A stretch of DNA of 64,000 nt from Rhodococcus coprophilus NBRC 100603 (GCF_001895045.1 NZ_BDAM01000010.1:62001-126000), one strand, 5' to 3'; positions 25,307 to 64,000 are shown, numbered from the stretch's first letter. Numbers and translations are program-made. Notes: generated by a model from the sequence alone, not told the origin.

Positions 25307-27016
25307 TTACTGCGCGGCGGCTGCTCCAGCTGCGTCGCGGGCGGCAATGTATCCGAACACCAGCCCCTGGCCGATGGTCGCGCCGGCGCCGGGATAGCGA
25401 TGACCGAAGGCGTTGGCCGCGGTGTTGCCCACCGCGTAGAGCCCGTCGATCACACTGCCGTCTTCGCGGAGCACGCGCGCCCGCTCGTCGGCCCGCACGC
25501 CACCGCACGTGCCGAGATCGCTCAGGGTCATCTTCACCGCGTAGAACGGGCCGTGAGTCAGGGGGCGCATGTTCGGGTTGGGCCGAACCGTGGGATCACC
25601 GTAGTACCGGTCGTAGGCGCTGCCGCCACGGCCGAACTCGGAATCCGTTCCGGCTGCGGCATCCTCGTTGAACGCGCCGAAGGTCTCGGCGAACGTGTCC
25701 ACCGGCACTCCCATCGACGCCGCGAGTTCTTCGGCGGTCGAAGCACGGTGAGCGATGCCGGCCTTGTACCAGGCCTCCGGCAGCGGCTGACGCGGAAACA
25801 CCCCGGCCGCGAACACGTAGCTGTTGCGGTACTTCTGGTCGAAGACGATCCACATCGACTCGATCGGATCACCCGCGCGTTCACGTTCGAGCACCAACTG
25901 CCCGAACGACATGTAATCCGAGGACTCGTTGGTGAAGCGCCGTCCGGTCTGATCGACGATGAATGAACCGGGCAGCGATCGCTCCGCGAGCATGACCATC
26001 GGCGGCTTGCCCGGCCTGGTGGGCGCGACGGCAGGGAACCACCACGCCTGATCCATGAGATCCAGGTCGGCACCGATCTCCTGGGCCGCCTTGATCGCGT
26101 CACCGGTGTTGGTCTCGGCGCCGAGGCTTTCGTTGTCGAGCAGGCGCTCGGACTGGAACTTGCGCCGCATCGCCATGTCGTGGTCGAAACCGCCTGCGGC
26201 GAGTACGACTCCGCGGCGCGCGGTCACCGTTACCTCACGCCCGTTCTGCTCCAGGACGGCGCCGGTGACCCGGTCGCCTTCGGTGACCAGACGCACGAGC
26301 GAGGTCTCGGTCCAGACCGGTACGCCGGCCTTCAGCACACCCGCGAACAGTCCCGCGGCGATCGCCTGGCCACCGGCGACATATTCACGCTTGACGGCGA
26401 GCCCGGCGACGCCCTGCGCCAATCGCTTGAAGATGCGCGGGAAGCCCTTGTGCGGCACGCGCAGCATGAGGTTCATCCACTTGTAGTCGGCGCCCGTCGT
26501 CGGCATCGGCAGCCCCGCCTCCATCAGGCCCGGGCGCAAACGTCCGCGTTCCTCACCGAGCACGGACAGGTCGAGCGGCTTGCATTCACAACTGCGTCCC
26601 ACCGCCGAGCCACCGGGCAACTCGGGGTGGTAATCGGAATAACCCTCCGCCCAGAACAGCTTCATCGGCGTCGTGCGCCGGAGCATGTCTACGGTCGCCA
26701 CACCGTTGTCGACGAAGGCCTCGCCGCGCTCGGCCGGTGCCGTGCCGTCCACCACGGACCGGACGTAGGTGTGGCCGCGCTCGAGGGTGTCCCCCGACCC
26801 CGCCTCGGTCAGAATCGGGTTGGCCGGAACCCAGAACGCACCGCCGGAGCGAGCCGTGGAACCACCGACATGCTGTGCCTTCTCCACGATCAGGGCCGAC
26901 ATGCCCAATTCCTTGGCGGCGAGGGCAGCGGACATTCCGGTGCCCGAGCCGATCACGAGCAGATCGACGGTGGTATCACGGGCGGTGGTCACGGGCGGAA
27001 CAGGCATCGTCGCCAT
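25307..27016 (-). CDS. kstD: 3-Ketosteroid delta1-dehydrogenase
   Basis: A 569-residue FAD enzyme that introduces the C1-C2 double bond in 3-ketosteroids. FAD-binding LLVIGSGTGMSAALAA and GGSTARSGGAFWVP are at the N-terminus. Candidate active-site tyrosines lie in GYSDYHPE and in the C-terminal YPGAGATIGQ, where KstDs have Tyr-Pro-Gly-x-Gly; length fits the longer KstD group. ATG at 27016 has AAGGAGA six bases upstream. The KshA, HsaA and HsaC genes of the same strand support a steroid or closely related substrate. Confidence 0.82.
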   Translation of the reverse strand: MATMPVPPVTTARDTTVDLLVIGSGTGMSAALAAKELGMSALIVEKAQHVGGSTARSGGAFWVPANPILTEAGSGDTLERGHTYVRSVVDGTAPAERGEAFVDNGVATVDMLRRTTPMKLFWAEGYSDYHPELPGGSAVGRSCECKPLDLSVLGEERGRLRPGLMEAGLPMPTTGADYKWMNLMLRVPHKGFPRIFKRLAQGVAGLAVKREYVAGGQAIAAGLFAGVLKAGVPVWTETSLVRLVTEGDRVTGAVLEQNGREVTVTARRGVVLAAGGFDHDMAMRRKFQSERLLDNESLGAETNTGDAIKAAQEIGADLDLMDQAWWFPAVAPTRPGKPPMVMLAERSLPGSFIVDQTGRRFTNESSDYMSFGQLVLERERAGDPIESMWIVFDQKYRNSYVFAAGVFPRQPLPEAWYKAGIAHRASTAEELAASMGVPVDTFAETFGAFNEDAAAGTDSEFGRGGSAYDRYYGDPTVRPNPNMRPLTHGPFYAVKMTLSDLGTCGGVRADERARVLREDGSVIDGLYAVGNTAANAFGHRYPGAGATIGQGLVFGYIAARDAAGAAAAQ

Positions 27017-27370
27017 CAAATCTCTCCTTGGCCTGGTTGTGTGCTGGACCGTATGGCAGGGCGGGCGCCGCTACGGACGTGTTCCCGACCAACGGGATCT
27101 GTTTTTGTCGTACGAAGACATCGAGTTATGGGGTCGATTGCCCCGGTTGCAGCAGTGCCCGGCCGGGTCGGACTCCCGCGTCTGATCACCCACACGTCGA
27201 TCCGGAACGCTGTCCTGCCGCGGTGGGCCGCAGTTCGCATCCGGAACCAGTTCGGTGGTCGCCGCGACGTCGATCGCGGCGCGGGCCGGACCCATGATCA
27301 GCGTGACACCGCACACGACCCGGCTGTGGCCGTCACCCTCTGCGCAGCGACGGGAGAGACTGCCCGCGAT
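27017..27370. other. Non-coding gap upstream of kstD
   Basis: No convincing gene is seen on either strand. It contains the kstD promoter region and a TGTC-GTACGAA-GACA inverted repeat at 27106-27120, whose core TTCGTACGAC (minus strand) recurs upstream of the HSL esterase at 51913. No match to the KstR-type AACnnGTT palindrome was seen. Confidence 0.6.
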
Positions 27371-28255
27371 TCACGAGACACGTTCTACGTCGATTCCCAT
27401 CCGCGTCAGCATGCCTCGTGGATCGGCCGGCGGCGCCAGATCGAGAAGTTGATTGCCCCGGCGGTGAGCGGCCGCGGCACACATCTCGTCGTCGGAATGG
27501 ATCCAGAATTCGCCTCGGGCAATCTGTTCGACCATGTGCTCCGCGGCGACGAGCGGGTCGAGCCCCTTCTCCACATTGTCGCGCTGCATTGCGGCGAACA
27601 CCGCGTTCGCGGTGGGGTTGCCGGTCGGCGCCTCGCGCTGCGCCGACAGGAAGATCTCGCTGCGAATCGAATGCGGAATGACCGCGCTGACCTGGATGGG
27701 TGCGCCCACGATCGCCAGATCTTGATACAGGCACTCGGTCATCGCCAGCACCGCGTGCTTGCTGACGATGTACGGAGCCTGGACGGCGACAGCATTGAGT
27801 CCACCGACCGACGACATGTTCGCGATGCACGACGGAGTGCCCGCTGCGATCATCCTCGGGACGAAGGACTGCAGACAATAGAAGACGCCGTCGACGTTGA
27901 TCTGCATCAACCGATGCCACCGCTCGCGGTCGATCTCCCACAGCAGACCCGCCGACTCCACGCCGGCATTGTTCACAAGCAGTTCGACGCTGCCGTGACT
28001 GTTGAAAACCGCTGCGGCCATCGCCTCGACGGACTCCGGATCGGCGACGTCCACAGCGTAGGGTTCCGCGCAGCCACCTCCCGCCACGATGTCGTCGGCC
28101 ACTGTCGCTGCCCGCTCGGCATCGATGTCTGCGACGATCACCGTCATCCCCAGGGAGGCGAGATGCCTCGCCAGACCTTCCCCGATACCCGCAGCGGCAC
28201 CCGTCACAACGGAAACACCTCGGGAGAACCGCTTGCGCGCAGCACTTTCCTGCAT
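27371..28255 (-). CDS. SDR family oxidoreductase
   Basis: A 294-residue classical SDR: TGAAAGIGEG cofactor loop, VADIDAERA after beta-2 (acidic end, favouring NAD), NNAGVES, catalytic MSSVGG and YIVSKHA. The C-terminal extension of about 40 residues is longer than usual. ATG at 28255 is preceded by GTGAGG and lies two bases after the stop of the next SDR gene, so the two are co-transcribed. A hydroxysteroid dehydrogenase role fits the context but is not proven. Confidence 0.82.
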   Translation of the reverse strand: MQESAARKRFSRGVSVVTGAAAGIGEGLARHLASLGMTVIVADIDAERAATVADDIVAGGGCAEPYAVDVADPESVEAMAAAVFNSHGSVELLVNNAGVESAGLLWEIDRERWHRLMQINVDGVFYCLQSFVPRMIAAGTPSCIANMSSVGGLNAVAVQAPYIVSKHAVLAMTECLYQDLAIVGAPIQVSAVIPHSIRSEIFLSAQREAPTGNPTANAVFAAMQRDNVEKGLDPLVAAEHMVEQIARGEFWIHSDDEMCAAAAHRRGNQLLDLAPPADPRGMLTRMGIDVERVS

Positions 28256-28257
28256 CC

Positions 28258-29196
28258 TCACACCTTCAATCCGTCGGCAGCAATGTTCGGGTTCGCCCAC
28301 GACGGCGGCTCTCGCCGAGGCAGTTCGATCCGCCCGTCCAGACTCATCACCGGAATCTGCTGCGACCAGGGGAAGTGCAAGCTGAATGCGATGCGCCCGG
28401 TGCATTCCTTTGCAGGCGATGTGCACATCTCCAGAACCGTCTGAGCGAGGTACTCGGGCGGTTCGGTGTCGTAATCGTCCGGCAACAGCGCCGCGGCCCC
28501 CGGTGTCATGATCGCCGTCGACGGGCCGACCACATTGACGGCGATGTTGTCGTCGAGGACTTCCGCCGCCAATCCCTCGGTGAACCGATGCAGCGCAGCC
28601 TTTGCCGACGCGTAGATCACGTCACCGGAGGTCTTGTTGTACTCGCGGAACGGGCGGATCGGCGGGAGCCCGGTGGAGGAACCGATATTGACGATCCAAC
28701 CGCGCCCGGACGCGCGCATACGAGGGATCACGGCCTGCGACAGAAGGAACGGGACCTTCAGATAGTGCTCGAGGGTCCGGTCGAAGGTGTCCTCCCCCAT
28801 GTCCTCGATCGACGAGTAATCGGCAAAACCGGCGTTGTTGACCAGGATGTCGACTCCCCCCACGGCGTCGACGGCAGCGTCGACGAGACCTGCACGCTGA
28901 ACCGGATCCTCGAGGTCCGCCGCGATCGCAACCGCCCTGCCGCCCGCTCGCTCGATCAGCTGCACCGTCTCCTCGAGAGTGCCCGAGAGCACGTGCTCCC
29001 GTCCGCCGCGAAGCGACCGCGACGGTGTCATCGAGCGGGCGGTGACCACGACGGTGGCGCCCTCGGCCGCGAGGCGCTGCGCGACAGCGCGGCCGATTCC
29101 GCGGCTACTCCCCGTGACGAGAGCGGTGCGACCGGTCAATCGTTGTGTCATGTCGGTTCCTGTTGTGTTGTCCGGGTTCGTGTCCCGATCGGTCAT
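28258..29196 (-). CDS. SDR family oxidoreductase
   Basis: A 312-residue SDR with TGSSRGIGRA, NNAGFADYS, catalytic serine in NIGSSTG and YASAKAA. The region after beta-2 is Arg/Ser-rich (TARSMTPSRSLRGG), suggesting NADP(H), with an insertion of about 15 residues that is typical of some actinobacterial steroid-cluster SDRs. ATG at 29196 overlaps the esterase stop (ATGA). It belongs to the esterase-SDR-SDR unit. Confidence 0.82.
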   Translation of the reverse strand: MTDRDTNPDNTTGTDMTQRLTGRTALVTGSSRGIGRAVAQRLAAEGATVVVTARSMTPSRSLRGGREHVLSGTLEETVQLIERAGGRAVAIAADLEDPVQRAGLVDAAVDAVGGVDILVNNAGFADYSSIEDMGEDTFDRTLEHYLKVPFLLSQAVIPRMRASGRGWIVNIGSSTGLPPIRPFREYNKTSGDVIYASAKAALHRFTEGLAAEVLDDNIAVNVVGPSTAIMTPGAAALLPDDYDTEPPEYLAQTVLEMCTSPAKECTGRIAFSLHFPWSQQIPVMSLDGRIELPRREPPSWANPNIAADGLKV

Positions 29197-30182
29197 GGTC
29201 GTGTGGCGGCGCGGGTGCGCGGGTCCTCGATATGGCCGTCACAGAAAGCGGGGTCGAGAATCCGGCGGACCAACTGCCAGAGCTCCTCCCGCGCGGGCCC
29301 GGTCAGGGAGAGCTGTGGAAAGGTGAGGAAGCCGTGAAACAGCCCGTCGAAACGGTGTGCGAGCACCGGAACCCCCTCCGCGGCAAGCCGCTCGGCGAAT
29401 GCTTCGCCCTCGGAACACGGCGGGTCGAGCTCTGCGGTCGCGACCAACGCCGGAGGCAACCCCGCCAGTGTCGATGCACGAGTCGGCACGACGAGTTCGC
29501 TGTCTCGGCCCTGTGGCGCGTACTGGTCCCAGTACCAGCGCATCGCCTTCGTGGTGTTGTAGTAGCCGACGCCGTACTGCCGGTACGACTCCGTATCGAA
29601 GTCGTCCCCGAGCACCGGATACAGCAGGATCTGCGCCGCGACGGCCGGGCCTCCACGTTCGCGGGCGGCGAGCGATACCGTCGCCGAAAGGTTTCCGCCT
29701 GCACTGTCACCCGCAACCGCAACCCTGGCCGGATCGCCGCCATAGGACTTGACGTTCTCCACCGTCCAGCACAGTGCGGCGTACATGTCCTCCATCGCCG
29801 CCGGCGCCGGGTTCTCCGGAGCAAGCCGGTAGTCGACCGCCACCACGACGGCATTCACGGCCTCGGCCATCGACCGGCAGAACTCGTCGTGGCTGTCGAG
29901 ATCGCAGAAGACGAAGCCACCGCCATGGGCGAACACGATGACAGGGCGCGGCGAATCCAATTCTCCGTGCGGAACATACACCCGCAGTGTCAGGTCACCG
30001 CCCGGTCCGTCGATCACCACATCCTGCGCCACGTCCATATCCGGGGTGCGCGTCAGAGGTGCGCGACGCGAGACGATGATCTGTCTCAGCTCGGCCGCCG
30101 GATACTGCGTCACGTCCGGGAAGCCCGCTTCCAGGCCGGCGAGCATGGTCTCGACATCGGGATGCAGATCGGGGCGGCGCAC
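29193..30182 (-). CDS. Alpha/beta hydrolase, hormone-sensitive lipase family (esterase)
   Basis: A 329-residue HSL-type (alpha/beta hydrolase fold-3) esterase. Oxyanion-hole motif FAHGGGFVF, nucleophile elbow VAGDSAGGN, a likely acid in TAELDPPCSEGEAF and histidine in FDGLFHGFL. GTG at 30182 is set by AGGAGG five bases upstream. Two Baeyer-Villiger monooxygenases lie in the same strand run, so it is a good candidate to hydrolyse the ester they make. It overlaps the following SDR gene. Confidence 0.85.
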   Translation of the reverse strand: MRRPDLHPDVETMLAGLEAGFPDVTQYPAAELRQIIVSRRAPLTRTPDMDVAQDVVIDGPGGDLTLRVYVPHGELDSPRPVIVFAHGGGFVFCDLDSHDEFCRSMAEAVNAVVVAVDYRLAPENPAPAAMEDMYAALCWTVENVKSYGGDPARVAVAGDSAGGNLSATVSLAARERGGPAVAAQILLYPVLGDDFDTESYRQYGVGYYNTTKAMRWYWDQYAPQGRDSELVVPTRASTLAGLPPALVATAELDPPCSEGEAFAERLAAEGVPVLAHRFDGLFHGFLTFPQLSLTGPAREELWQLVRRILDPAFCDGHIEDPRTRAATRP

Positions 30183-30282
30183 AATTACCTCCTGGTTGAA
30201 ATGTTGCAGAAGCTGTGACAAACACGGTCTTTCACGATGCGCTGAGGCTTTCCGGGACGAACCACCCGCGAGGCAGAGTCGG

Positions 30283-31131
30283 TCACCGACCGAAACCGCG
30301 GAACTTACGCAGGTAGGACACGATTCGTCGAACAGGAACCGGGCGCGGCCAGTCGTCGGCACGGAAGTATGCATCGGAACCGCCGTCGACGAAAACCACG
30401 CTGCCACAGAGGAAGTCTGCGGCGTCAGACAGCATGAACACCACCCAGTCACCGAGCTGCCCGGCGTCACCGAATCCACCGACAGGCACCGGGAACGAGC
30501 GGATCGCCTTCGCCTCGGATGGAGTGGCGAGCTGCGTTTCCAGCAACGGCGTCATGATCGCACCCGGTGCGAGCGCGTTCAGTCGGATTCCTGCGCCCGC
30601 CCACTCGGGCTGCACGGCACTGCGTCGCACCCACCTGCTGACCGCGATCTTCGAGCCCGCATAGATGATGGCGGGAGACGTCTTACCGAACATCCGGACC
30701 GAACTCACGGCTCGCTCCACATCACCCCGGAGGAACGCGCCGACCGTGCGACGGGGTACGGCCGGTGTCACCGTCGTCGAATTGCTGGAGAATACGACTA
30801 CTTTCGCGTTCCCCGCGGCGGCAAGGGCGTCTCGCCACCCTTCCAGTAGGTCGACCACGCCGAAGTAGTTGACCTCGGCGATCAGCCGCGGGCGATCTTT
30901 GCCCGGCGCCGGTCCGAGGCCGGCCGCGAGCACGGCACCGTCCAGCCGGTCGCCGGAGGCGGCCAGGACCTCACGCACCGCCTGTTCCCTGCCGCGAGCA
31001 GTGGACAGGTCCGCGACGACGTCGGCCTCCCGGAGATCGACTCCGATGACGGTGTGCCCGCCGGCACGAAGCTTGTCCGCAACGGCTCGGCCCATTCCCG
31101 ACGCCGATCCGGTCACTGCATAGACGCCCAC
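30283..31131 (-). CDS. SDR family oxidoreductase
   Basis: A 282-residue SDR with TGSASGMGRA, a short VDLREADVVADL, catalytic serine region VVFSSNS and YAGSKIAVSRW. The pattern with an early truncated alpha-2/beta-3 region and a long C-terminus resembles bacterial 3-alpha-hydroxysteroid dehydrogenases of the HsdA type. GTG at 31131 is chosen because GAAAGGG lies upstream. It follows the BVMO gene by 10 nt and is probably co-transcribed with it. Confidence 0.78.
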   Translation of the reverse strand: MGVYAVTGSASGMGRAVADKLRAGGHTVIGVDLREADVVADLSTARGREQAVREVLAASGDRLDGAVLAAGLGPAPGKDRPRLIAEVNYFGVVDLLEGWRDALAAAGNAKVVVFSSNSTTVTPAVPRRTVGAFLRGDVERAVSSVRMFGKTSPAIIYAGSKIAVSRWVRRSAVQPEWAGAGIRLNALAPGAIMTPLLETQLATPSEAKAIRSFPVPVGGFGDAGQLGDWVVFMLSDAADFLCGSVVFVDGGSDAYFRADDWPRPVPVRRIVSYLRKFRGFGR

Positions 31132-31141: not shown

Positions 31142-33130
31142 TCACATTTCACCGACTCGCCCGGACGCAGGGTCGATGAACTCGAAGGCGTCCGGGTTCG
31201 GCTCCCGCAGCAGTGACCAGTAGTCGACCAACCGCCACGGGCACGGCACGACCGCGCGTCCTGCGCTGTTTCGGTAGTAGCCGTTGACCTCCGCGCCGGG
31301 ATGCACCCATACGGTCTTGTCGAGTGCCTCGTCGACCTTGCGGTTGTAGTCGTCGAGCACGTCCTGCCGCACGTCCATCGCGTCGTGCCCGTTCTCCAGG
31401 AGGTACTGCAGGCATTCGACGGTGTAGTGGACGTGCTCTTCACTCAAAATATTGTGTCCGGCACCGTGGTTCGGAGCAGAGTTCGGACCTGCGGTGACAA
31501 AGAGGTTCGGGAACCCGGACACCTGGATGCCGAGGTAGGCGCGGGGGTCGTCACCGCCTTTCCATCGCTCTGCCAGTGTATGCCCGTCCCGTCCGACGAT
31601 GTCGATCGACGTGGTGAACTCCAGCGCGAATCCTGTTGCCAGGATGATCACGTCGGCCCGCACGAATTCGCCCTCCGTGGTGATCACTCCCTCGGGCGTC
31701 ACCCGCTGGAACGAAGCCCGGTGCAGTGTCACATGGTCACGGGTGAGGGCCTTGTAGAAGCCGGGGTCCTTGACGATCCTCTTGGCGTAGGGGCGGAAGT
31801 CGGGGGTCAGCTTTTCCACGAGGTCGGGACGGCCCGCGAAACTGGTCTCCATATAGTTCCGCGCAGTATTGAGCACCATCTCGTTGGCGGGAGATGCGGA
31901 AAAGTGCGTCTGTGCCCATTCGGGATCGATGCGCGGCATCACGTACAGGTTGTCGGACGCGAACCAGTACGACCGCAGCCGGAACCATTCGTGGTAACGC
32001 GGAATATTGGCGAGCGCCCACTTCTCGCCGTCCGGAACATCGTTGACGACAGCCTTCTCCGGCACGATCCAGTGCGGTGACCGGACCACGACGTCCAGGC
32101 TCTCCACCTCGTCGACAATGCTCGCGACCACCTGGACCGACGTGCATCCGGTTCCGAGTACGACCACCCGCTTTCCGGTCAGATCGAGGCTCTCGTCCCA
32201 TTCGGCGGTGTGGACGATGGTGCCGCCGAACGAGTCCATGCCCTCGACATCGGGGATGTTCGGCGAGTTGAGCATGCCGAGCGCGGTCACCACCGCGTTT
32301 GCACGATGGACCTCGCGGGTGCCGTCCGCGGATTCGGTGGTCACCTCCCACACATGCTGGTCATCGAGCCAACGTGCGGACAGCACTCGCGTGCGGAACG
32401 CAATGTTATCGGCGATCCCGTAGGACTCGACAACGCCCTTCAGGTACTTCTGGTACTCGACGCCCGACGGATAGTACTTCGACCACCCGGGGTTCAGTTC
32501 GAAGGAATACGAGTAGTAATGGCTGGGTGTATCGACGGCAGCTCCCGGATACGTGTTGCGCGACCATGTTCCACCGATTTCGTGGCGAGCCTCGAACACG
32601 CGGTACGCGAAGCCGGCGTCTGCCAGCTTTATCGCGGCGTTGATTCCGACGATGCCCGCACCGATGACGATGACGGAGAAGTCGTCGGGCGGCGTGACGG
32701 TGACCGGGACGCGGCGTTCGGCGAGAACGAACCCGGCCTGCTCGCGCAGGATCGGAACGAACTCGTCGTCGACGCGCTCCGAGGTCGCCACCGTTGCCAT
32801 GCGACGGAACAACTCGGAATCAGGCACGCTCAGGAGATCGTCCATCTCAGGTGTGAGCAGTTGGTGCGCGCGAGCCCGGATATCGGCGATCACGTCGACC
32901 GGGTATTGACCGGGCGGCGTGGTCGGGCGCGTTCCGGTGCGATAGTGGTTGCCCGGTTCGCTGATGGTCAGGCGCAGCCCGAACTCGTCGAGCAAACCGG
33001 TATCACCGGTTACGTGGACGAGAGACATGAGCAGTGGCGCCGGGTCGCACACGTCGATCGCGGCGTGCAGTTGTGCTACGCGGTCCTCATCGTCGGCCGC
33101 ACGGGAGTCGAGGGGCATCGTCTCGGTCAT
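31142..33130 (-). CDS. Baeyer-Villiger monooxygenase, HAPMO-type with N-terminal extension
   Basis: A 662-residue flavoprotein monooxygenase that inserts oxygen next to a ketone. About 145 N-terminal residues precede the first Rossmann motif VIVIGAGIVGINAA, as in 4-hydroxyacetophenone monooxygenases. The BVMO fingerprint FGGTIVHTAEW and the second dinucleotide site VVLGTGCTSVQ are intact. ATG at 33130. Members of this group act on aryl ketones and steroids; the neighbours (second BVMO, esterase, KshA) favour a polycyclic ketone. Confidence 0.88.
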   Translation of the reverse strand: MTETMPLDSRAADDEDRVAQLHAAIDVCDPAPLLMSLVHVTGDTGLLDEFGLRLTISEPGNHYRTGTRPTTPPGQYPVDVIADIRARAHQLLTPEMDDLLSVPDSELFRRMATVATSERVDDEFVPILREQAGFVLAERRVPVTVTPPDDFSVIVIGAGIVGINAAIKLADAGFAYRVFEARHEIGGTWSRNTYPGAAVDTPSHYYSYSFELNPGWSKYYPSGVEYQKYLKGVVESYGIADNIAFRTRVLSARWLDDQHVWEVTTESADGTREVHRANAVVTALGMLNSPNIPDVEGMDSFGGTIVHTAEWDESLDLTGKRVVVLGTGCTSVQVVASIVDEVESLDVVVRSPHWIVPEKAVVNDVPDGEKWALANIPRYHEWFRLRSYWFASDNLYVMPRIDPEWAQTHFSASPANEMVLNTARNYMETSFAGRPDLVEKLTPDFRPYAKRIVKDPGFYKALTRDHVTLHRASFQRVTPEGVITTEGEFVRADVIILATGFALEFTTSIDIVGRDGHTLAERWKGGDDPRAYLGIQVSGFPNLFVTAGPNSAPNHGAGHNILSEEHVHYTVECLQYLLENGHDAMDVRQDVLDDYNRKVDEALDKTVWVHPGAEVNGYYRNSAGRAVVPCPWRLVDYWSLLREPNPDAFEFIDPASGRVGEM

Positions 33131-34783: not shown

Positions 34784-34806
34784 TGTGTTCACATCCTTGT
34801 CGGAGG

Positions 34807-51902: not shown

Positions 51903-51912
51903 ACGCACTCCC

Positions 51913-51925
51913 TTCGTACGACGAA
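51913..51925. promoter_or_regulatory. Small palindrome TTCGT-ACG-ACGAA upstream of the HSL esterase
   Basis: A 5-3-5 inverted repeat 11 nt before the esterase start. Its first ten bases recur (opposite strand) in the kstD upstream region at 27107-27116. It may be a regulator site shared by the two promoters. Confidence 0.3.
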
Positions 51926-54788: not shown

Positions 54789-55244
54789 GTGCTCACCGAC
54801 AGCAAGGACGAGCGGGACATCTACCGCGCTATCGTGCGCATCGCTCGCGCGATGGACCAACGCGACTGGGCAGTTATCGAGAACATCGCCGTGCCCGAAG
54901 CCACCGGCGACTTCGGTACCGGGCCCCTGAGATCGGCAACCGAAATCATCGCCCTCCTACGCAATTTCCTCGACGACTGCGGCCCGACTCAACACATGAT
55001 CGGCAACGTCCTGATCGAGATCGACGAGAACACCGCAACCAGTCGGGCATACGTCGCCGACATGCACCTCGGGGCAGGTGACCTCGCGGGACAGTTCTTT
55101 CGAACGCTGGGCGACTATCACGATTCGTGGATCCGCACATCCGAGGGATGGCGCCTGACCAATCGCACCAAGAAACACAACGGGGTGCTCGGCAATATCG
55201 CAGTGCTCGCTCACGCGTCGTCGCCTGACGCCACCCGGGCGTAG
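54789..55244 (+). CDS. SnoaL-like (NTF2 fold) protein
   Basis: A 151-residue NTF2-like protein: DERDIYRAIVRIARAMDQRD at the N-terminus, then a beta-rich body with GPTQHMIGNVLIEIDENTAT and YHDSWIRTSEGWRLTNRTKK. This is the layout of SnoaL-like hydratases/isomerases found in steroid and polyketide pathways. GTG at 54789 is preferred because AAGGAG lies six bases upstream; earlier in-frame starts exist. First gene of the plus-strand run. Confidence 0.75.
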   Translation: MLTDSKDERDIYRAIVRIARAMDQRDWAVIENIAVPEATGDFGTGPLRSATEIIALLRNFLDDCGPTQHMIGNVLIEIDENTATSRAYVADMHLGAGDLAGQFFRTLGDYHDSWIRTSEGWRLTNRTKKHNGVLGNIAVLAHASSPDATRA

Positions 55245-56853: not shown

Positions 56854-58344
56854 ATGTTCGATTCCCTGCGACGTTCAGCCGCACCAACTCCGGACGGTCC
56901 GATGGCCCCCAAGTCGACGACATACATCATCGTGGCCCTGGTACTTGCCGAGTGCGTCAGCGCATTCGAAGCCGGCATGATCTTCATCGCGCTGCCACGC
57001 TTCGGTGAGATTTTCGATGCACCGGCATCGACAACAGGGTGGGCAGTAACTGCCTACATGCTCGTGGGCGCGACGACCGCACTCGTCGGAGGTCGCCTCG
57101 GCGACATGTACGGCCGCAAGAAGGTCCTCATCATCGCAATGATGGTGTCGACGCTCGGTTCCGTGATCAGTGTCTTCGGCGACTCGATGGGCGCAATCAT
57201 CGTGGGTCGAGGCGTACAAGGTGCGGCCGGTGCGATCCTGCCCCTCTGCTACGGCCTCGCACGCGAGGTGCTGCCCGCCGGCAAGGTTTCCCTTGCCGTC
57301 GGATACATCAGTGGGGCCGCCCTCCTCGCCGGATCCGGTGGCTATTTCATCGCCGGGGTGCTGCTCGATGTGGCTGACTGGCATATGATCTTCGTCTTCG
57401 CCGCCGTTCTGGCCCTCGTTGCGTCCGCAGTGGCCGCACTCGCGCTCCCCGGCACCCACACACGCACGGAGCTACCACGATTCGACTATCTGGGCGCAGC
57501 ACTGCTGACGCCCGGCCTGATCGCAATCCTCTACGGCATCACCCAGGGTCCGGCGTGGGGATGGGCAAGTTTCGGCGTCCTCGGTCTCATCATCTGCGGG
57601 CTCGCGATCCTGGCCGTATGGACTGCCTGGGAACTGCGTCAGGAAGAACCTCTCGTCAACCTCCGAGCACTCGCCACCAAGCGGATGACGCTCAATCTGA
57701 TCGGGGTATCGGTACTCGCTCTCGGTCCGGTCGGCGCGGTGCAGATCGTCACCCCGATGATTCTCCAGGCGCCGACGTCCTTGCCCATCGGACTCGGCAT
57801 GTCGGCGACCGTGGCAGGTCTCATCGGCGGAATCGGCGCAATTGTGGGGTTCGCCGTGTCTCCGATAGCGGGTGTGGTTGCGGGACGCTGGGGCGGGCGG
57901 ACCGCGTTCTTCATCGGAGCCGCTCTGTTCGCCGTAGCCAATGTCATGATCCTCGTCGGCCACAAGTCGCTGCCGATCATGATCGGCGTCTTCGTTCTCG
58001 CCGCTGTCGCAACGGCGTTCGCCTACACCGGTTATCCGAAGATCGTCATCGAGTCCGTCCCCGAGGACGTCACCAGCGTCACGACGGGCGTATTGGCCAC
58101 CGCCCGCCAGGCATTCTCTGCGGTGAGCGTGGCCATCGTGTCGGTCATGCTCTCCATCTGGACCGTGCCGGGAACGACCGCACCCGCGTTGTCCTCGTTC
58201 AACCTCGCAGTGGGGTGGTTCGTCGTGTGCTCGCTCATCGTCGCCGCCATCTGCTTGTTCATCGGACGGCCCCGGCAGGCGGGCGACTCCGACGAGCACA
58301 CCGCAGGAGAAGTGGACCCGGAGGTATCTGCGACCTCCGCTTGA
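56854..58344 (+). CDS. MFS transporter, DHA2-like (14 TM)
   Basis: A 496-residue major facilitator with about 14 hydrophobic segments. Motif A appears as GGRLGDMYGRKKVLI after TM2 and GRGVQGAAGAILPLCYGLAR marks TM4-TM5 of drug:H+ antiporters. Its position within the flavoprotein and esterase run suggests export of toxic intermediates or uptake of substrate. ATG at 56854 has AGGAGGA upstream. A strong hairpin follows. Confidence 0.9.
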   Translation: MFDSLRRSAAPTPDGPMAPKSTTYIIVALVLAECVSAFEAGMIFIALPRFGEIFDAPASTTGWAVTAYMLVGATTALVGGRLGDMYGRKKVLIIAMMVSTLGSVISVFGDSMGAIIVGRGVQGAAGAILPLCYGLAREVLPAGKVSLAVGYISGAALLAGSGGYFIAGVLLDVADWHMIFVFAAVLALVASAVAALALPGTHTRTELPRFDYLGAALLTPGLIAILYGITQGPAWGWASFGVLGLIICGLAILAVWTAWELRQEEPLVNLRALATKRMTLNLIGVSVLALGPVGAVQIVTPMILQAPTSLPIGLGMSATVAGLIGGIGAIVGFAVSPIAGVVAGRWGGRTAFFIGAALFAVANVMILVGHKSLPIMIGVFVLAAVATAFAYTGYPKIVIESVPEDVTSVTTGVLATARQAFSAVSVAIVSVMLSIWTVPGTTAPALSSFNLAVGWFVVCSLIVAAICLFIGRPRQAGDSDEHTAGEVDPEVSATSA

Positions 58345-58412: not shown

Positions 58413-58516
58413 ACCTGCAGGTAACGATCCGACGCACCGTTGTCGACACACGATCGTCTCCCGCGAGGCGGGAGATGACGGTGCCCCAGTGCTTTTCGTG
58501 ACCGTAGGGTTCCAGC

Positions 58517-58864
58517 ATGGCTGACGAAACGATATATGTGATCGACCGCGTGGTCACCAAACCCGGATGTGCACGCAAGTTCGTCGACGCGTACGTCACG
58601 GAATACGTTCCCGGTGGTCGCCGGCGCGGGATGACACTCGACCGGATCCTTGTCAGCCCACCGATCTGGTTCGACGACGACTCCAACACCGTCACCGTCA
58701 CGTGGACCGTCGACAGTGTGGGGGCGTGGTGGGAGATGACCCGCCAAGGCCGTCGCGACCCCGGTCTCGGTGAATGGTGGTCGAAAATGGAGGAATTGAT
58801 CCTCGAACGTTCCCGCTCCATGGCCGCCGGGGCCGACGATGTCGAAGGGTTGACCGATGTATAA
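58517..58864 (+). CDS. Small dimeric alpha/beta-barrel-like protein
   Basis: A 115-residue protein that reads like a single ferredoxin-like (ABM/NIPSNAP-type) domain: beta strand ETIYVIDRVVTKPGCARKFV, a helix, then TVTVTWTVDSVGAWWEM and a C-terminal helix. No catalytic motif is recognised. Such proteins can act as monooxygenases, cyclases or chlorite-dismutase-like enzymes. ATG at 58517. It overlaps the next gene by 8 nt, so the two work together. Confidence 0.6.
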   Translation: MADETIYVIDRVVTKPGCARKFVDAYVTEYVPGGRRRGMTLDRILVSPPIWFDDDSNTVTVTWTVDSVGAWWEMTRQGRRDPGLGEWWSKMEELILERSRSMAAGADDVEGLTDV

Positions 58865-59498
58865 TGTGACACGCGTTGTCCACTTCGAGGACTCTGCGAA
58901 CGCCTCGGACCGGGCCGAATACCTGGAGAAGATCCGCCACACGGTGAAGGGGCTCGGCGCGCCGCGCCACCTCGTGGCGCCGACGCTGCCGGGGGTGATC
59001 AACGGCGGTGAACTGCTTGTCCACCTGCAACTCCCCGCAGCAGACGGTGCCACCGACGTGATCGGTGCACTCGACCGCGCCCTCGAGGGTCCCGCCACCG
59101 CTCGAATCGACGGCGTGCAGTACCCCGCATCTCCGGGGCAGTCACGCCCGGACGCACCTCGGAGTGTCTACCGTGCGCTGCTGCTGCGTATCGCTCCGGG
59201 CACGCCGACAGCGACCGTCGAACGATTCGAACGCGATCTGCTGACGATGCCCCGATACATTTCGTCGATCGGCGCGTGGCGGCTCGACCGTGTGGAGAAG
59301 TCGGTGGGCCCCACTGCCTGGACCCACGTGTGGGAGCAGGAATTCACCGATCACGCTTCGCTCATAGGCCAATACCTCGACCATCCGGTCCACTGGGGCG
59401 TCGTGGATCGTTGGTTCGACCCCGAGTGCCCGGAAGCCGTGGTCCGCGATCGGGTGTGCCATACCTTCTGCCTCATCGACGACACCGTCATCCGATGA
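58857..59498 (+). CDS. Two-domain alpha/beta-barrel protein (Dabb-like)
   Basis: A 213-residue protein with two similar halves: residues 1-95 (MYNVTRVVHFEDSANAS at the start) and 105-205 (SVYRALLLRIAPGTPTATVE), both resembling stress-responsive Dabb domains that dimerise into a barrel. Function unknown, possibly ring isomerisation or hydration. Coupled upstream by 8 nt overlap and downstream by ATGA with the HSL esterase, making a three-gene unit. Confidence 0.6.
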   Translation: MYNVTRVVHFEDSANASDRAEYLEKIRHTVKGLGAPRHLVAPTLPGVINGGELLVHLQLPAADGATDVIGALDRALEGPATARIDGVQYPASPGQSRPDAPRSVYRALLLRIAPGTPTATVERFERDLLTMPRYISSIGAWRLDRVEKSVGPTAWTHVWEQEFTDHASLIGQYLDHPVHWGVVDRWFDPECPEAVVRDRVCHTFCLIDDTVIR

Positions 59499-60475
59499 AT
59501 ACGCACTCCGACGCCACTCCGGCAGACAACGACGACCGGATCTACGATCGGGACGTCCGTTCGATCATCGACGCGATGCGCGCACGCCGCGCTCCGTCTC
59601 TGCAGGCCATCGGAATCGACGCGACCCGTCGTGCACTCGAATCGATCCAGCGGCCACCGGGACCGGACATGCAGGCCGTTCGCTCGCTCGAATTCGACGG
59701 TCCTCACGGTCCCGTCCCCGTACGGGTCTACCACCCCCACTCGGTACGGGAGCGGGACGCACCGGCCCTCGTCTGGTTCCACGGAGGCGGGATGATCATG
59801 GGCTCACTCGAGTCCTTCGATCGCCTTGCACGCGAGGTTGCCGCAGCAGCGCATGCCGTGGTCGTCAACGTGGGCTACCGACTCGCTCCGGAGCATCGGT
59901 ATCCCGTCGCCCACGACGAGTCCTATGCGGCCGTGTGCTGGGTACAGGAGAACGCCGGAGAGTGGGGGGTGGACCCGACTCGAATCGGCGTCGGCGGCGA
60001 CAGTGCCGGAGGTGGCCTGGCGGCCGCGACTGCGCTGCGGGCACGCAACGAGAAAGGACCGCACCTCGCTCAGCAGGTCCTGATCTACCCTGGCCTGGAG
60101 CGGCGACGCGAGTCGCCGTCGATGCTCCGATTCGGCGACAGCCCTTTCCTTCGCGCAGGGGACATCGACTGGATGAAATCCTTGTACCTCGGAGACGATC
60201 CCTCGACGGACGACGAGTACGGCGTTCCCTCCTCGGCAGCCGATCTCTCGCAGTTACCACCTGCGATCGTGGTGTCTGGGTACGCCGATCCCCTCCGCGA
60301 CGGAGTGGAGGACTACGGCCGGCGACTGCAGGAGTCGGGCGTGTCGACGGCAATCATCCGCTATCCCGGTGTAGGGCACGGCTTCTTCATGCAGACTGCA
60401 TCCGTTGCGCGGGCACGGATGGCGATGGCCGAGGTCGGCGCACTGGTCTCCGCGCGCTTCGCGCACGGGAGCTGA
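59495..60475 (+). CDS. Alpha/beta hydrolase, HSL family (esterase)
   Basis: A 326-residue HSL-type esterase with intact motifs: oxyanion WFHGGGMIMG, VNVGYRLAPEHRYP, nucleophile GVGGDSAGGG, acid in SGYADPLRDGVEDY and histidine in YPGVGHGFF. ATG at 59495 overlaps the stop of the Dabb-like gene. It is the third HSL esterase in the region, so several ester or lactone bonds are probably cut in the pathway. Confidence 0.88.
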   Translation: MNTHSDATPADNDDRIYDRDVRSIIDAMRARRAPSLQAIGIDATRRALESIQRPPGPDMQAVRSLEFDGPHGPVPVRVYHPHSVRERDAPALVWFHGGGMIMGSLESFDRLAREVAAAAHAVVVNVGYRLAPEHRYPVAHDESYAAVCWVQENAGEWGVDPTRIGVGGDSAGGGLAAATALRARNEKGPHLAQQVLIYPGLERRRESPSMLRFGDSPFLRAGDIDWMKSLYLGDDPSTDDEYGVPSSAADLSQLPPAIVVSGYADPLRDGVEDYGRRLQESGVSTAIIRYPGVGHGFFMQTASVARARMAMAEVGALVSARFAHGS

Positions 60476-60589: not shown

Positions 60590-62068
60590 GTGTCTCGAAA
60601 CCCGGAGTCGCACGCGGAAAGCCACGATGTCCGCGAAGTGGACGTGGTCGTGGTCGGAATGGGCGCCGCCGGCTGCGCCGCAGCAGTGACCGCCCACGAC
60701 GCAGGGGCCACGGTGCTGGTACTGGAGAAGGCAGCCGCCGCCGAGGCCGGTGGAAATACCCGGGTGTCCGGTGGCGGCTGGTTCCACCACGACGACCCCG
60801 AACGCGCAGCAATCTATCTGCGTTCTCTTTGTGGCGACCGTCCGCTGCCCGAGCCTGTCGTGCACGCCTGGGCACACGGCACCCGCGAAGTCTCCAGGTG
60901 GGTGGAGTCACTCGGAGTATCGGTGGGCCCCAACGGCAATTACAACGCCACAGGCGCCGAGTACCCGGAGATGCCGGGCAGCGACTGTTACGGTGGCCTG
61001 TACTGCGTCGACGGGGTCGTCGGCGACGGTCGGCTCTTCGCCGCGCTCGAAAAGGCGCTGTTCGAGCGCGGAATCTCGGTGCACTACGACTCTCCCGCCT
61101 CCGGACTGATCACCGAGCCTGCTTCCGGCGAGGTGACCGGCGTCGTCACTGCAGCGGGCGACCGGATCCTTGCCCGTCGCGGCGTCGTGTTGGCCACCGG
61201 CGGTTTCGAGGGGGATCCGGAGCTGGTGCGTACCCACCTCGGGCTCGACGACGCGCCGGTGTGGGGCAGCGTGGCCGCCACCGGTGACGGACTACGCATG
61301 GCACAGGAGGCCGGAGCCGATCTGTGGCACATGGACAACATGATGGCGGTCAACGGCATCACCGAACCAGGTTCGCGGCACGGATATTTCGCGATGTTCC
61401 TGTACTCGCGGGGTGTGCTCTGGGTGGACGAGACGGGACGTCGTTTCGTCGACGAATTCGTCCCGTCAGGTCACGGCCAAGCTCTGATCGACGGACGATA
61501 TGTGCTCCATCCGCAGCGTCCGATGTGGGTGATCTTCGACGAGCACACTCGGCTGGCCGGCCCGATCAGTCCCTCGGCCGACGTACTCGCCGTCGGATGG
61601 AACGTATTGATGAACGGTTATCGGTGGAGCTCGGACAACAGCGCGGAGATCGCGGCGGGGTGGATTCACCGTGGCGACACCCTCGACGAGTTGGCTTCGC
61701 TGACGGGATTCCCGGGTGATGCGTTGAACGACAGCGTATCCGCGTACAACGCCGCGTGTGCGGCAGGAGACGACGGGGATTTCGGTCGTTCCCCCGCCAC
61801 CCTCGTGCCGATCCTCGAGCCGCCCTTCTACGCCTACCGCAGCGGGCCGCTGTTGGGCTGGACCAACGGCGGCCCTCGCCGGGACGAGCACGCACGTGTT
61901 CTCGATACCGCGGGCGCGGTGATCGAAGGTCTGTATGCGGCGGGCACTGTCAGTTCCACGTTCAGCTGGGCGAAGGACGGCGGGTTCCATATAGCCGATG
62001 CAATCGTCTTCGGCCGGGCCGCCGGAGAGCACGCCGCCGGACGTAGCCGTCGAAACCCCGAACACTGA
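60590..62068 (+). CDS. FAD-dependent dehydrogenase, fumarate reductase/TcuA-like
   Basis: A 492-residue flavoprotein of the fumarate reductase/KstD superfamily: FAD site VVVVGMGAAGCAAAVTAHDA, EAGGNTRVSGGGWF, GVVLATGGFEGDPELV and the C-terminal GLYAAGTVSSTFSWAKDGGF. It resembles tricarballylate-dehydrogenase-like proteins more than KstD, since the Tyr-Pro-Gly-x-Gly motif is missing. It probably desaturates an acid or ketone. GTG at 60590 has GAGGAGG upstream. Confidence 0.8.
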   Translation: MSRNPESHAESHDVREVDVVVVGMGAAGCAAAVTAHDAGATVLVLEKAAAAEAGGNTRVSGGGWFHHDDPERAAIYLRSLCGDRPLPEPVVHAWAHGTREVSRWVESLGVSVGPNGNYNATGAEYPEMPGSDCYGGLYCVDGVVGDGRLFAALEKALFERGISVHYDSPASGLITEPASGEVTGVVTAAGDRILARRGVVLATGGFEGDPELVRTHLGLDDAPVWGSVAATGDGLRMAQEAGADLWHMDNMMAVNGITEPGSRHGYFAMFLYSRGVLWVDETGRRFVDEFVPSGHGQALIDGRYVLHPQRPMWVIFDEHTRLAGPISPSADVLAVGWNVLMNGYRWSSDNSAEIAAGWIHRGDTLDELASLTGFPGDALNDSVSAYNAACAAGDDGDFGRSPATLVPILEPPFYAYRSGPLLGWTNGGPRRDEHARVLDTAGAVIEGLYAAGTVSSTFSWAKDGGFHIADAIVFGRAAGEHAAGRSRRNPEH

Positions 62069-63346: not shown

Positions 63347-63524
63347 TGTTACCTCCGTGTCGCAGATGACATGAGTTGAATATGCAAGGCGTGAGTGAGG
63401 AATGCAGGCCGGAAGAACTCACCGGACTCTAGGAAGCCCCCGAGAGGCGCGGATACCGGCGATTTCGTTCAGTGGAACACAGGATGCCCCTCTCGAGTGA
63501 CCCGCTTCACAATCACGCTGGGGT

Positions 63525-63553
63525 GTGGCACTATTCCTAGTAGAAATAGCCAC
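63525..63553. promoter_or_regulatory. Imperfect inverted repeat in the second kshA-iclR region
   Basis: GTGGCACTATT and AATAGCCAC form an imperfect palindrome (the right arm lacks two bases) around a CCTAGTAGA centre, 38 nt upstream of the IclR start. The TGGCA/GCCA arms recall the TGGCACG/CGTGCCA repeat in the first kshA-iclR gap, so both may be IclR operators. Confidence 0.42.
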
Positions 63554-63590
63554 GTCCCCGCGCCGACGGCGCTGCGGTTGTAGGAGCACA

Positions 63591-64000
63591 ATGACGATCC
63601 AGGCCGAAGCCGACCCCACGACACCCAGCGCAGTCCTCGACCGCGTCAACCTCGTACTCGATGCATTCAACGGCGTCAGCCGTCTCACTCTCGCCCAAAT
63701 CGTGCGTCGGACGGGCCTGCCCCGATCCTCTGCCCATCGCATGCTCGAACGGCTGGTGTCGATGCGATGGCTCCACCGCGAAGGCCGTGACTACACGCTG
63801 GGATTGCGGCTGATGGAACTCGGCTCACTCGCCGTCCACCAGGACCGGCTTCACGCCACCGCACTACCGCACCTGCAGGAACTCCAACGCGTCACCGGCT
63901 TCGTCGTCCACCTCGCTGTTCTCGAAGGTGACGACCTCGTCTACCTCGAAAAGCTCGGTGGACGCCTGGCCACGGTGGTTCCCACCCGCATCGGAGGGCG
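63591..64000 (+). CDS. IclR family transcriptional regulator (runs off the window)
   Basis: The first 136 codons of an IclR regulator: winged helix with LVLDAFNGVSRLTLAQIVRR, then TGLPRSSAHRMLERLVSMRW, followed by the start of the effector domain (FVVHLAVLEGDDLVYLEKLG). The recognition helix PRSSAHRxLE is identical to that of the IclR at 38395, so the two may bind like sites. ATG at 63591 has TAGGAG upstream. It is truncated by the window end and is divergent from the second kshA. Confidence 0.88.
   Translation, partial: MTIQAEADPTTPSAVLDRVNLVLDAFNGVSRLTLAQIVRRTGLPRSSAHRMLERLVSMRWLHREGRDYTLGLRLMELGSLAVHQDRLHATALPHLQELQRVTGFVVHLAVLEGDDLVYLEKLGGRLATVVPTRIGG

What the first reader, a model, noticed from the sequence alone, without database searches (positions are those of the whole stretch)
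25307..64000. Large steroid/polycyclic catabolic region with an unusual gene set
KstD, delta4-(5alpha)-KSTD-like, two KshA, HsaA-like, HsaC-like, two BVMOs, three HSL esterases, SMP-30, P450 with its own electron chain, heteromeric ACAD pair and CoA transferase lie within 39 kb. HsaB, HsaD, HsaEFG, KshB, Mce4 and KstR genes typical of the cholesterol cluster are not seen. This points to a second, specialised pathway, for example for bile acids, plant or animal steroids, or terpenoids.
Basis: partly seen in the sequence, partly recalled or inferred. Interest (0 to 1): 0.7.

Follow-up and report, generated by a model that had tools for sequence, protein, structure and literature searches.

The report
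Steroid-eating gene cluster, probably for pregnanes
This stretch of a soil-type bacterium's genome is a real steroid-degradation gene cluster, related to known but unassigned clusters in other actinobacteria, and its enzymes point to progesterone-like (C21) steroids as the likely food.

Summary
The observation largely holds. A steroid cluster starts at window 25307 and runs about 7 kb past the window end (C10:132977), followed by a MerR gene, dnaJ and grpE. It is not this genome's canonical steroid cluster: hsaA-D that pass their cut-offs lie on contig C9, and the genome has 5 KshA matches. An HsaB-like flavin reductase sits just past the window end.

The core is a nine-gene operon (27371-38181): KshA, HsaA, HsaC, a Baeyer-Villiger monooxygenase (BVMO) 62.6% identical to steroid monooxygenase (STMO), a second BVMO, an HSL esterase, three SDRs. 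STMO makes testosterone acetate from progesterone. I read the cluster as a C21 20-ketosteroid pathway: BVMO makes the 17-acetate, HSL1 hydrolyses it, an SDR oxidises the alcohol, 9,10-seco ring opening follows. Nothing was assayed.

The cluster type is not new: R. erythropolis R138 and R. jostii RHA1 carry it on plasmids, and a 2016 paper calls the RHA1 genes' function unknown.

Added here: the substrate proposal; the STMO-type/HsaA-HsaC neighbourhood (72 of 76 loci); a candidate operator, TCTCCCGCNNNGCGGGAGA, with 4 of 7 genome sites (up to 2 mismatches) in the cluster, but uneven support in relatives. The acyl-CoA and P450 modules stay unexplained.

The parts
25307..27016 (-). KstD (3-ketosteroid delta1-dehydrogenase); C-terminal YPGAGAT fits the residues printed for R. 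ruber KstD2
   Evidence: PRK12845 1056 bits, cut-off 793; residues set against a table passage in PMC5348764 whose column order I inferred
27371..28207 (-). SDR1
   Evidence: adh_short E 4.7e-42; 78% identical in R138 and RHA1
28258..29151 (-). SDR2
   Evidence: adh_short E 6.5e-40; 75% in R138
29193..30182 (-). HSL1 esterase, proposed 17-acetate hydrolase
   Evidence: Abhydrolase_3 E 3.8e-72; HGGG and GDSAG motifs; present in 24 of 27 window-type loci
30283..31131 (-). SDR3
   Evidence: adh_short_C2 E 3.7e-20
31142..33130 (-). long BVMO (662 aa, about 150-aa N-terminal extension)
   Evidence: type I BVMOs of the PDB up to 215.8 bits; FGGTIVHTAEW fingerprint; 80% in R138, 75% in RHA1
33167..34849 (-). 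STMO-type BVMO; start overlaps the end of hsaC by 43 bases
   Evidence: 752 bits to STMO 4aos, 622 to PAMO; 62.6% identity over 524 aa
34807..35721 (-). HsaC-like extradiol dioxygenase
   Evidence: HsaC model 337.7 bits, under its cut-off of 450
35752..36936 (-). HsaA-like monooxygenase
   Evidence: HsaA model 388 bits, under its cut-off of 450
36982..38181 (-). KshA oxygenase (first copy), head of the nine-gene operon
   Evidence: KshA_C E 4.5e-86; 567.5 bits to 4qdc; Rieske and D..H....H motifs
38265..38283 (.). operator candidate in the KshA|IclR divergent gap (3 mismatches to the palindrome)
38395..39174 (+). IclR-type regulator
   Evidence: IclR_C E 6.8e-23
39361..39765 (-). VOC-family protein
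   Evidence: Glyoxalase E 2.1e-09
39762..40520 (-). SDR4
   Evidence: adh_short_C2 E 1.8e-46; 81% in R138, 78% in RHA1
40646..41461 (+). enoyl-CoA hydratase family
   Evidence: ECH_1 E 2.5e-30
41458..42615 (+). acyl-CoA dehydrogenase
   Evidence: Pfam ACAD domains; best PDB 4x28, 130.6 bits
42612..43709 (+). acyl-CoA dehydrogenase-like partner
   Evidence: Acyl-CoA_dh_1 E 1.1e-16; N and M domains below cut-off
43706..44995 (+). class III CoA transferase
   Evidence: CoA_transf_3 E 9.1e-120
45052..45759 (+). GntR/FCD regulator
   Evidence: FCD and GntR domains
45861..47099 (-). ferredoxin reductase
   Evidence: Pyr_redox_2 and Reductase_C
47173..47493 (-). [2Fe-2S] ferredoxin
   Evidence: cysteine motif; no NCBIfam hit at E 1e-15
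47503..48753 (-). cytochrome P450, not of the CYP125 type
   Evidence: Pfam p450; best PDB 263 bits (4aw3), a CYP125 reconstruction 185; HHCLG heme cysteine in the sequence
48796..49704 (-). SDR5
   Evidence: adh_short E 4.2e-42
49741..50688 (-). SMP-30/gluconolactonase-like protein
   Evidence: SGL E 1.2e-46
50967..51923 (-). HSL2 hydrolase (start uncertain)
   Evidence: Abhydrolase_3 E 1.2e-61; GESAG present, HGG string not found
51955..52440 (-). SnoaL-like protein
   Evidence: SnoaL_4 E 0.0015, below cut-off; 61% in RHA1
52770..53813 (-). 347-aa protein without Pfam or NCBIfam match
   Evidence: homologues 51-73%
54023..54469 (-). F420H2-dependent quinone reductase family
   Evidence: E 3.6e-46
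54592..54610 (.). operator candidate (2 mismatches), divergent gap
54729..55244 (+). SnoaL-like protein
   Evidence: SnoaL_4 E 1.2e-24
55342..56820 (+). delta4-(5alpha)-3-ketosteroid dehydrogenase
   Evidence: 802 bits to 4at0
56902..58344 (+). MFS transporter
   Evidence: MFS_1 E 3.4e-39
58457..58475 (.). perfect copy of the candidate operator TCTCCCGCNNNGCGGGAGA (the seed from which it was written)
58857..59498 (+). Dabb (A/B barrel) protein
   Evidence: E 3.1e-10
59495..60475 (+). HSL3 hydrolase
   Evidence: Abhydrolase_3 E 8.1e-68
60590..62068 (+). FAD_binding_2 flavoprotein of unknown specificity
   Evidence: E 1.1e-46; best PDB 117 bits
62147..63346 (-). KshA oxygenase (second copy)
   Evidence: KshA_C E 4.1e-89; 627.4 bits to 4qdc
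63591..64000 (+). IclR-type regulator, cut by the window end (C10:125591-126352)
   Evidence: 37.7% identical to the first IclR

Best explanation
A largely self-contained upper pathway for C21 20-ketosteroids (pregnanes such as progesterone and its 5alpha-reduced relatives), probably under its own operator. Proposed steps: KstD and delta4-(5alpha)-KSTD desaturate ring A; the STMO-type BVMO turns the 17-acetyl (20-keto) side chain into a 17beta-acetate ester; an HSL esterase, most likely HSL1 of the same operon, hydrolyses it; an SDR oxidises the 17beta-alcohol; KshA, HsaA (with the flavin reductase past the window) and HsaC open rings B and A. HsaD and the C/D-ring enzymes would be borrowed from the other clusters. 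The order of side-chain removal and ring opening is open. Shown: gene content, operon geometry, family similarity, conserved neighbourhood, repeated palindrome. Inferred: every reaction, the substrate, and what binds the palindrome.
For: BVMO 33167-34849: 752 bits to STMO against 622 to PAMO and 518.5 or less to cyclohexanone monooxygenases, 62.6% identity over 524 aa. It overlaps hsaC by 43 bases in the operon KshA-HsaA-HsaC-BVMO-BVMO-SDR-HSL-SDR-SDR. A scan that chose loci by the BVMO alone (222 relatives, the best 80 kept, 76 distinct loci) gave HsaA or HsaC in 72 of 76; HSL1 in 24 of 27 loci with BVMO identity of 74% or more; both HsaA and HsaC in 44 of 44 loci under 66%. Among 151 family genomes HsaC lies within 5 kb in 9 of the 10 with BVMO identity of 75% or more, own genome included. 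STMO makes testosterone acetate; lactonisation of androstenedione was not observed (PMC12239570, passages). KstD carries residues that fit those printed for R. ruber KstD2, whose best substrate is progesterone; RHA1 ro90203 and ro09040 of that branch were not induced by cholesterol or 7-ketocholesterol (PMC5348764, passages). Own regulation.
Against: STMO's nearest relatives among the fetched loci are mycobacterial BVMOs (63-73%), the window protein is at 62.6%: a sister, so the substrate may have shifted. A simple C21 ketone needs no CoA: ECH-ACAD-ACAD (present in R138 and RHA1; the CoA transferase is 76% in RHA1 but only a 33% match in R138) and the second BVMO have no place in the scheme. 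Another type I BVMO, R. erythropolis XP BVMO_4041, did not convert progesterone (PMC12724338, passages), so BVMO class alone proves nothing. R. ruber KstD2 also serves AD, and I inferred the column of its residue table, so the KstD argument is weak. At BVMO identities of 66-75% HsaC is within 5 kb in 0 of 5 cases and at 60-66% in 9 of 35 (within 20 kb: 4 of 5 and 24 of 35, from 110 transcribed HsaC rows of a listing that was itself cut). The palindrome is not found near the BVMO in 4 of 9 other genomes.
Confidence: 0.5

Rival explanations
1. The cluster handles a larger plant or animal steroid (sapogenin, steroidal alkaloid, ecdysteroid or similar). P450-ferredoxin-reductase and the acyl-CoA module remove or degrade the outer side chain, and the STMO-type BVMO finishes at the C21 ketone stage.
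For: P450 with its own electron chain and a CoA module in the region; delta4-(5alpha)-KSTD suits 5alpha steroids, and a Sphingobium delta4-dehydrogenase is reported to act on the ketone made from tomatidine (PMC10653915, passages); the best plasmid match is from a potato-hydroponics isolate; the closest solved relatives of ACAD1 are 4x28 and Tcur3483, which I recall as heteromeric steroid side-chain ACADs.
Against: P450, ferredoxin reductase and SMP-30 have no tblastn match at 1e-10 in the R138 and RHA1 stretches of 49-50 kb, so they look accessory. They also pass the cut in 0 of 76 loci, but those loci hold at most 10 kb beside the BVMO and the P450 here is 12.7 kb away, so that count says little. 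No glycosidase is among the genes scanned.
Confidence: 0.2
2. A variant bile-acid (cholate-type) A/B-ring cluster, as the 2016 survey suggested for the RHA1 plasmid genes.
For: PMC4810484 calls the pRHL1 genes most similar to those of the cholate pathway (passages); the window HsaC and HsaA are closer to the C9:131704 set (61%, 59%) and the C10:197528 set (56%, 57%) than to the canonical ones (46%, 41%); a CoA module is present.
Against: BVMOs are not part of the cholate scheme as I recall it; another set with HsaA, HsaC, an HsaD-like hydrolase (261 bits, cut-off 400) and a delta4-KSTD homologue is at C9:128842-134950, with an ACAD homologue nearby, and may be the better cholate candidate; I did not test that.
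Confidence: 0.14
3. A C19 (androgen) cluster in which the BVMOs open ring D at the 17-ketone and the SMP-30 protein or an HSL hydrolyses the lactone.
For: Two BVMOs, three HSL hydrolases and an SMP-30 lactonase-like protein; KstD2-type enzymes also use AD (PMC5348764, passages).
Against: Lactonisation of androstenedione by STMO was not observed (PMC12239570, passages); SMP-30 has no match in the R138 and RHA1 stretches.
Confidence: 0.1
4. A non-steroid polycyclic (terpenoid) pathway built from steroid-like enzymes.
For: BVMO, P450 and SDR families are also common in terpenoid catabolism (general knowledge).
Against: Two KshA, a KstD over its cut-off, a delta4-(5alpha)-KSTD at 802 bits to 4at0, HsaA-like and HsaC-like together are ketosteroid enzymes.
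Confidence: 0.04

Closest known systems
Orphan steroid genes on plasmid pRHL1 of Rhodococcus jostii RHA1 (cluster of kshA4, ro09003, in the literature)
   Same: Protein identities to the 49-kb stretch read: BVMO_S 79%, BVMO_L 75%, SDR1 78%, HSL1 70%, SDR4 78%, ECH 70%, ACAD1 77%, CoA transferase 76%, KstD 70% and 68%, IclR and GntR 65%.
   Different: Gene order differs, ACAD2 is only 51%, and no KshA, HsaA or HsaC match was found in that stretch; where kshA4 lies was not located, the record being unannotated. No match there to P450, ferredoxin reductase or SMP-30.
Cluster on plasmid pLRE138 of Rhodococcus erythropolis R138
   Same: Same order KshA-HsaA-HsaC-BVMO-...-BVMO with divergent IclR, 72-85% protein identity, and an operator-like site in the same gap.
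   Different: HSL1, SDR2 and SDR1 lie between the two BVMOs; the CoA transferase there is only a 33% match; no match to P450, ferredoxin reductase, SMP-30 or KstD in the 49.9 kb read.
Steroid monooxygenase (STMO) of Rhodococcus rhodochrous, PDB 4aos
   Same: Type I BVMO, 62.6% identity over 524 aa, highest-scoring solved structure.
   Different: Mycobacterial homologues are closer to STMO (63-73%); activity of the window protein on progesterone not tested.
Progesterone cluster pdc of Caenibius tardaugens
   Same: [quoted passage not shown] this cluster also has BVMOs and, past the window end, a luciferase-like monooxygenase (PMC12239570, passages).
   Different: The pdc BVMO is 30.4% identical to STMO and the acetate hydrolase is unknown there; here an esterase sits in the operon.
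Canonical hsaA-D cluster of this genome (C9:181895-189465)
   Same: KshA, KstD, HsaA and HsaC functions.
   Different: Carries HsaB and HsaD and two KstR-type boxes; its HsaA-D pass NCBIfam cut-offs that the window HsaA and HsaC do not.

Membership tests
Type I Baeyer-Villiger monooxygenase | FxGxxxHxxxW fingerprint with Rossmann motifs | tested here: met
   BVMO_S FAGESYHTAEW with GAGISG and GTGSSG; BVMO_L FGGTIVHTAEW with GAGIVG, a second exact GxGxxG not found in BVMO_L
Steroid monooxygenase (STMO) | full-length similarity, best among solved BVMOs | tested here: met
   752 bits over 528 residues, next PAMO 622
Steroid monooxygenase (STMO) | orthology rather than sister group | tested here: inconclusive
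   mycobacterial homologues are closer to STMO (63-73%) than the window protein (62.6%); no rooted tree made
Steroid monooxygenase (STMO) | oxidises progesterone to testosterone acetate | not testable with these tools
   needs an assay
9,10-seco steroid pathway, A/B-ring genes | KstD, KshA, HsaA-type, HsaC-type present together | tested here: met
9,10-seco steroid pathway, A/B-ring genes | HsaB and HsaD in the same cluster | tested here: inconclusive
   HsaB-like flavin reductase at C10:129201-129695, 205.7 bits against cut-off 230; no HsaD among the genes scanned
Canonical HsaA / HsaC equivalogs | score over the NCBIfam cut-off (450) | tested here: not met
   HsaA-like 388, HsaC-like 337.7; canonical copies 709.8 and 565.4
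KstR regulon (cholesterol) | KstR box TNNAACNNGTTNNA (recalled consensus) in the cluster's promoters | tested here: not met
   window: one match, at 24385, left of the cluster, expected 0.23; stretch past the window: none; canonical stretch L110: two, expected 0.07
RHA1 pRHL1-type cluster | shared BVMO pair, SDRs, HSL, ECH-ACAD-CoA transferase, IclR and GntR | tested here: met
Cholate cluster of Rhodococcus | induction by and need for growth on cholate | not testable with these tools
   no expression or mutant data for this genome

The most novel reading that the evidence does not exclude
The cluster and its relatives form a dedicated regulon for pregnane-skeleton steroids from plants or animals, in which the P450 with its own ferredoxin chain and the acyl-CoA module first cut a longer side chain down to the C21 ketone, and the STMO-type BVMO plus HSL1 then remove the rest: a bacterial counterpart of side-chain cleavage followed by Baeyer-Villiger excision, read by an operator independent of KstR.
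Probability: 0.12. Interest if true: 0.72.

Novelty: new variant of a known kind. Interest (0 to 1): 0.45.

Why it matters
One set of steroid genes of the model strain R. jostii RHA1 has been listed as of unknown function (PMC4810484, passages). The reading here gives it and its relatives a testable substrate class. The co-operonic HSL1 is a concrete candidate for a testosterone acetate hydrolase, the step that a 2025 progesterone study left unassigned in Caenibius (PMC12239570, passages). The candidate operator gives a simple test of where the regulon ends.

Tried and rejected
KshB in the window: 24468-25259 has FAD_binding_6 and NAD_binding_1 but no Fer2 match, and lies left of the cluster; rejected. 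CYP125-type P450: rejected on score. Two ARAGORN tRNAs have no Rfam match at gathering; treated as probably false. KshA copies were compared with the solved KshA chains in the hope of a substrate-class assignment; both score best to 4qdc, but all three solved KshA are close, so I draw nothing from it. A first operator string taken from the gap alignment gave 2 window matches with 3 mismatches allowed, reached by 7 of 100 shuffles, and a variant gave none. The two-genus consensus and the 19-base palindrome were written afterwards with these sites in view. With up to 3 mismatches the palindrome is not remarkable by count alone: window 4, expected 1.40, 7 of 100 shuffles reach it; L011 2, expected 0.45, 18 of 200. 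The two-genus consensus has no match in the part past the window. In the nine other genomes with BVMO_S identity of 75% or more, 8 of 72 palindrome sites lie within 55 kb of the BVMO and 4 of 9 genomes have none there. The gap alignment used 9 of 41 sequences examined (window and L028-L067); the others failed identity or spacing limits. Structure prediction of the 347-aa protein was asked for three times and the machine was busy. Literature searches for a substrate assignment of this cluster type; none was seen in their listings or in the passages read; the library lacks most subscription journals. The 2012 STMO structure paper and the 2012 rhodococcal BVMO screen are not held, so activity data on RHA1 BVMOs may exist that I did not see.

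Full report
Setting. The window is C10:62001-126000 of a 4.55-Mb genome in 30 contigs. The named loci with the closest BVMO are Rhodococcus sp. CH91, R. phenolicus and Rhodococcus sp. HM1; the species itself was not identified.

Observation. PDB comparisons sharpen them: BVMO 33167-34849 is closest to steroid monooxygenase (752 bits); 55342-56820 is a delta4-(5alpha)-KSTD (802 bits to 4at0); both KshA score over 560 bits to solved KshA; the P450 is not CYP125-like. A ferredoxin lies between P450 and ferredoxin reductase. KstD passes the NCBIfam cut-off for a 3-ketosteroid delta1-dehydrogenase, whereas HsaA-like and HsaC-like fall below the cut-offs of canonical HsaA and HsaC, so I treat them as paralogues.

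Boundaries and missing genes. Past the window end come an IclR regulator, PadR, SnoaL_2, an OYE-type protein, a flavin reductase, a luciferase-like monooxygenase, a 150-aa protein without Pfam match and a KstD-type flavoprotein, then a MerR gene, dnaJ and grpE. The flavin reductase matches HsaB best, just below cut-off. Canonical HsaB, HsaC, HsaD and HsaA are at C9:181895-185437. The genome has 5 KshA_C, 5 BphC_D1 and 30 MlaD matches. KstR and HsaEFG were not searched for.

Anatomy. Gene calls give a nine-gene minus-strand operon from KshA (38181) to SDR1 (27371), with gaps of -43 to 100 bases and the BVMO start inside hsaC. A plus-strand operon ECH-ACAD-ACAD-CoA transferase has four-base overlaps. 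P450, SDR5 and SMP-30 are a third unit (gaps 42 and 36 bases). Operons are inferred from spacing; no transcript data exist here.

Relatives. pLRE138 of R. erythropolis R138 is the one record of 103 matching plasmid records where a place covers at least 80% of a 6.8-kb query. Its proteins are 57-85% identical for KshA, HsaA, HsaC, both BVMOs, HSL1, SDR1, SDR2, SDR4, IclR, ECH and both ACADs; its CoA transferase is only a 33% match, and it has no KstD match in the stretch. RHA1 pRHL1 shares most of the core but no KshA, HsaA or HsaC in the stretch read. A scan by the BVMO alone found 222 relatives; the best 80 were kept, 76 distinct loci. Of these 76, 72 hold HsaA or HsaC. In the 27 with BVMO identity of 74% or more: HsaA 25, HsaC 24, HSL1 24, KshA 23, long BVMO 19. 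In 5 of 66-74%: HsaA 3, HsaC 3, HSL1 3. In the 44 under 66%: HsaA 44, HsaC 44, delta4-KSTD-like 39, HSL1-like 32, KshA 4. Loci hold at most 10 kb on each side, so absences are lower bounds. Across 151 genomes of the family, 75 have a BVMO match at E 1e-150 or better and 10 at 75% identity or more, own genome included; in 9 of these 10 HsaC is within 5 kb. At 66-75% it is 0 of 5, at 60-66% 9 of 35 (within 20 kb 4 of 5 and 24 of 35); the HsaC listing was cut and genomes are drafts, so these are lower bounds.

Regulation. Aligning the KshA|IclR gap of 9 sequences showed a conserved block. Written as TCTCCYGCNNANYGGRA it occurs twice in the window (expected 0.01 by shuffles), both in divergent promoter gaps, and 0 times in 280 kb of other stretches of this genome, the part of the cluster past the window included. 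With 2 mismatches allowed the window has 12 matches, expected 4.16, reached by 0 of 100 shuffles. A fuller form, TCTCCCGCNNNGCGGGAGA, has 7 sites with up to 2 mismatches in the whole genome, against 3 for the reversed pattern; 4 of 7 lie in the 46-kb cluster or, for one, in the promoter gap at its right edge, all 4 intergenic. Without the perfect site from which the palindrome was written it is 3 of 6, binomial chance about 2e-5, a figure that ignores that the pattern was refined with these sites in view. With 3 mismatches allowed the window count (4, expected 1.40) is not remarkable by itself. In other loci, sites with up to 3 mismatches stand between IclR and KshA in L014, L028, L029, L030, L039, L042 and L045. 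Over nine other genomes support is uneven: 8 of 72 sites within 55 kb of the BVMO, none there in 4 of 9. KstR-type boxes were not found in the cluster but stand twice in the canonical stretch. Which regulator binds is inferred (IclR first).

Mechanism. STMO converts progesterone to testosterone acetate and lactonisation of androstenedione was not observed (PMC12239570, passages). With an esterase and SDRs in the same operon, the simplest reading is side-chain removal from a C21 20-ketosteroid coupled to ring opening. KstD carries residues that fit those printed for R. ruber KstD2 (column order of the table inferred), which prefers progesterone but also takes AD; two RHA1 kstD genes of that branch, ro90203 and ro09040, were expressed but not induced by cholesterol or 7-ketocholesterol (PMC5348764, passages); that they are the plasmid kstDs met here is my inference from the numbering. 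This is supportive but weak. What the scheme does not explain: the second BVMO, the CoA module (closest solved ACAD 4x28), the P450 chain, SMP-30 and the 347-aa protein. These are why confidence stays near one half.

Known or new. PMC4064121 (passages) lists four RHA1 sterol clusters, each with a kshA, the fourth being ro09003. [quoted passage not shown] PMC6498646 (passages) lists a cyclohexanone monooxygenase gene, padR and iclR in a figure legend on R. ruber steroid clusters. I saw no substrate assignment in the searches of the held library. The kind of system is known; the substrate proposal, the conserved neighbourhood and the candidate operator are what this work adds, as hypotheses from sequence.

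Noticed in passing
window 52770-53813: A 347-aa protein with no Pfam or NCBIfam match, two homologues in the RHA1 pRHL1 stretch and relatives in Prescottella and Williamsia loci; invariant HFD (134-136) and later histidines suggest a metal-dependent oxygenase (a guess). Structure prediction could not be run.
   Followed up: partly
window 60590-62068: FAD_binding_2 flavoprotein in the cluster with only distant solved relatives (117 bits); neither a clear KstD nor a delta4-KSTD.
   Followed up: partly
C10:131442-132977 (just past the window): KstD-type flavoprotein whose C-terminal residues fit those printed for R. ruber KstD1 (column order inferred); a palindrome site with 2 mismatches is in its promoter gap. 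Its NCBIfam model calls it only 'FAD-binding protein'.
   Followed up: partly
C10:129787-130776 (just past the window): Luciferase-like monooxygenase next to the HsaB-like reductase; in Caenibius a luciferase-like enzyme acts beside a BVMO on progesterone.
   Followed up: no
C10:188659-209206: A further KshA/HsaC/HsaA set with two IclR-like genes and a hydrolase distantly like macrolide esterases (under cut-off); substrate unknown.
   Followed up: no
window 1165-1283: Cobalamin riboswitch just above its gathering score (31.7 against 31.5), minus strand.
   Followed up: no
window 4633-4727 and 45802-45870: ARAGORN tRNA calls without an Rfam match at gathering; probably false.
   Followed up: partly
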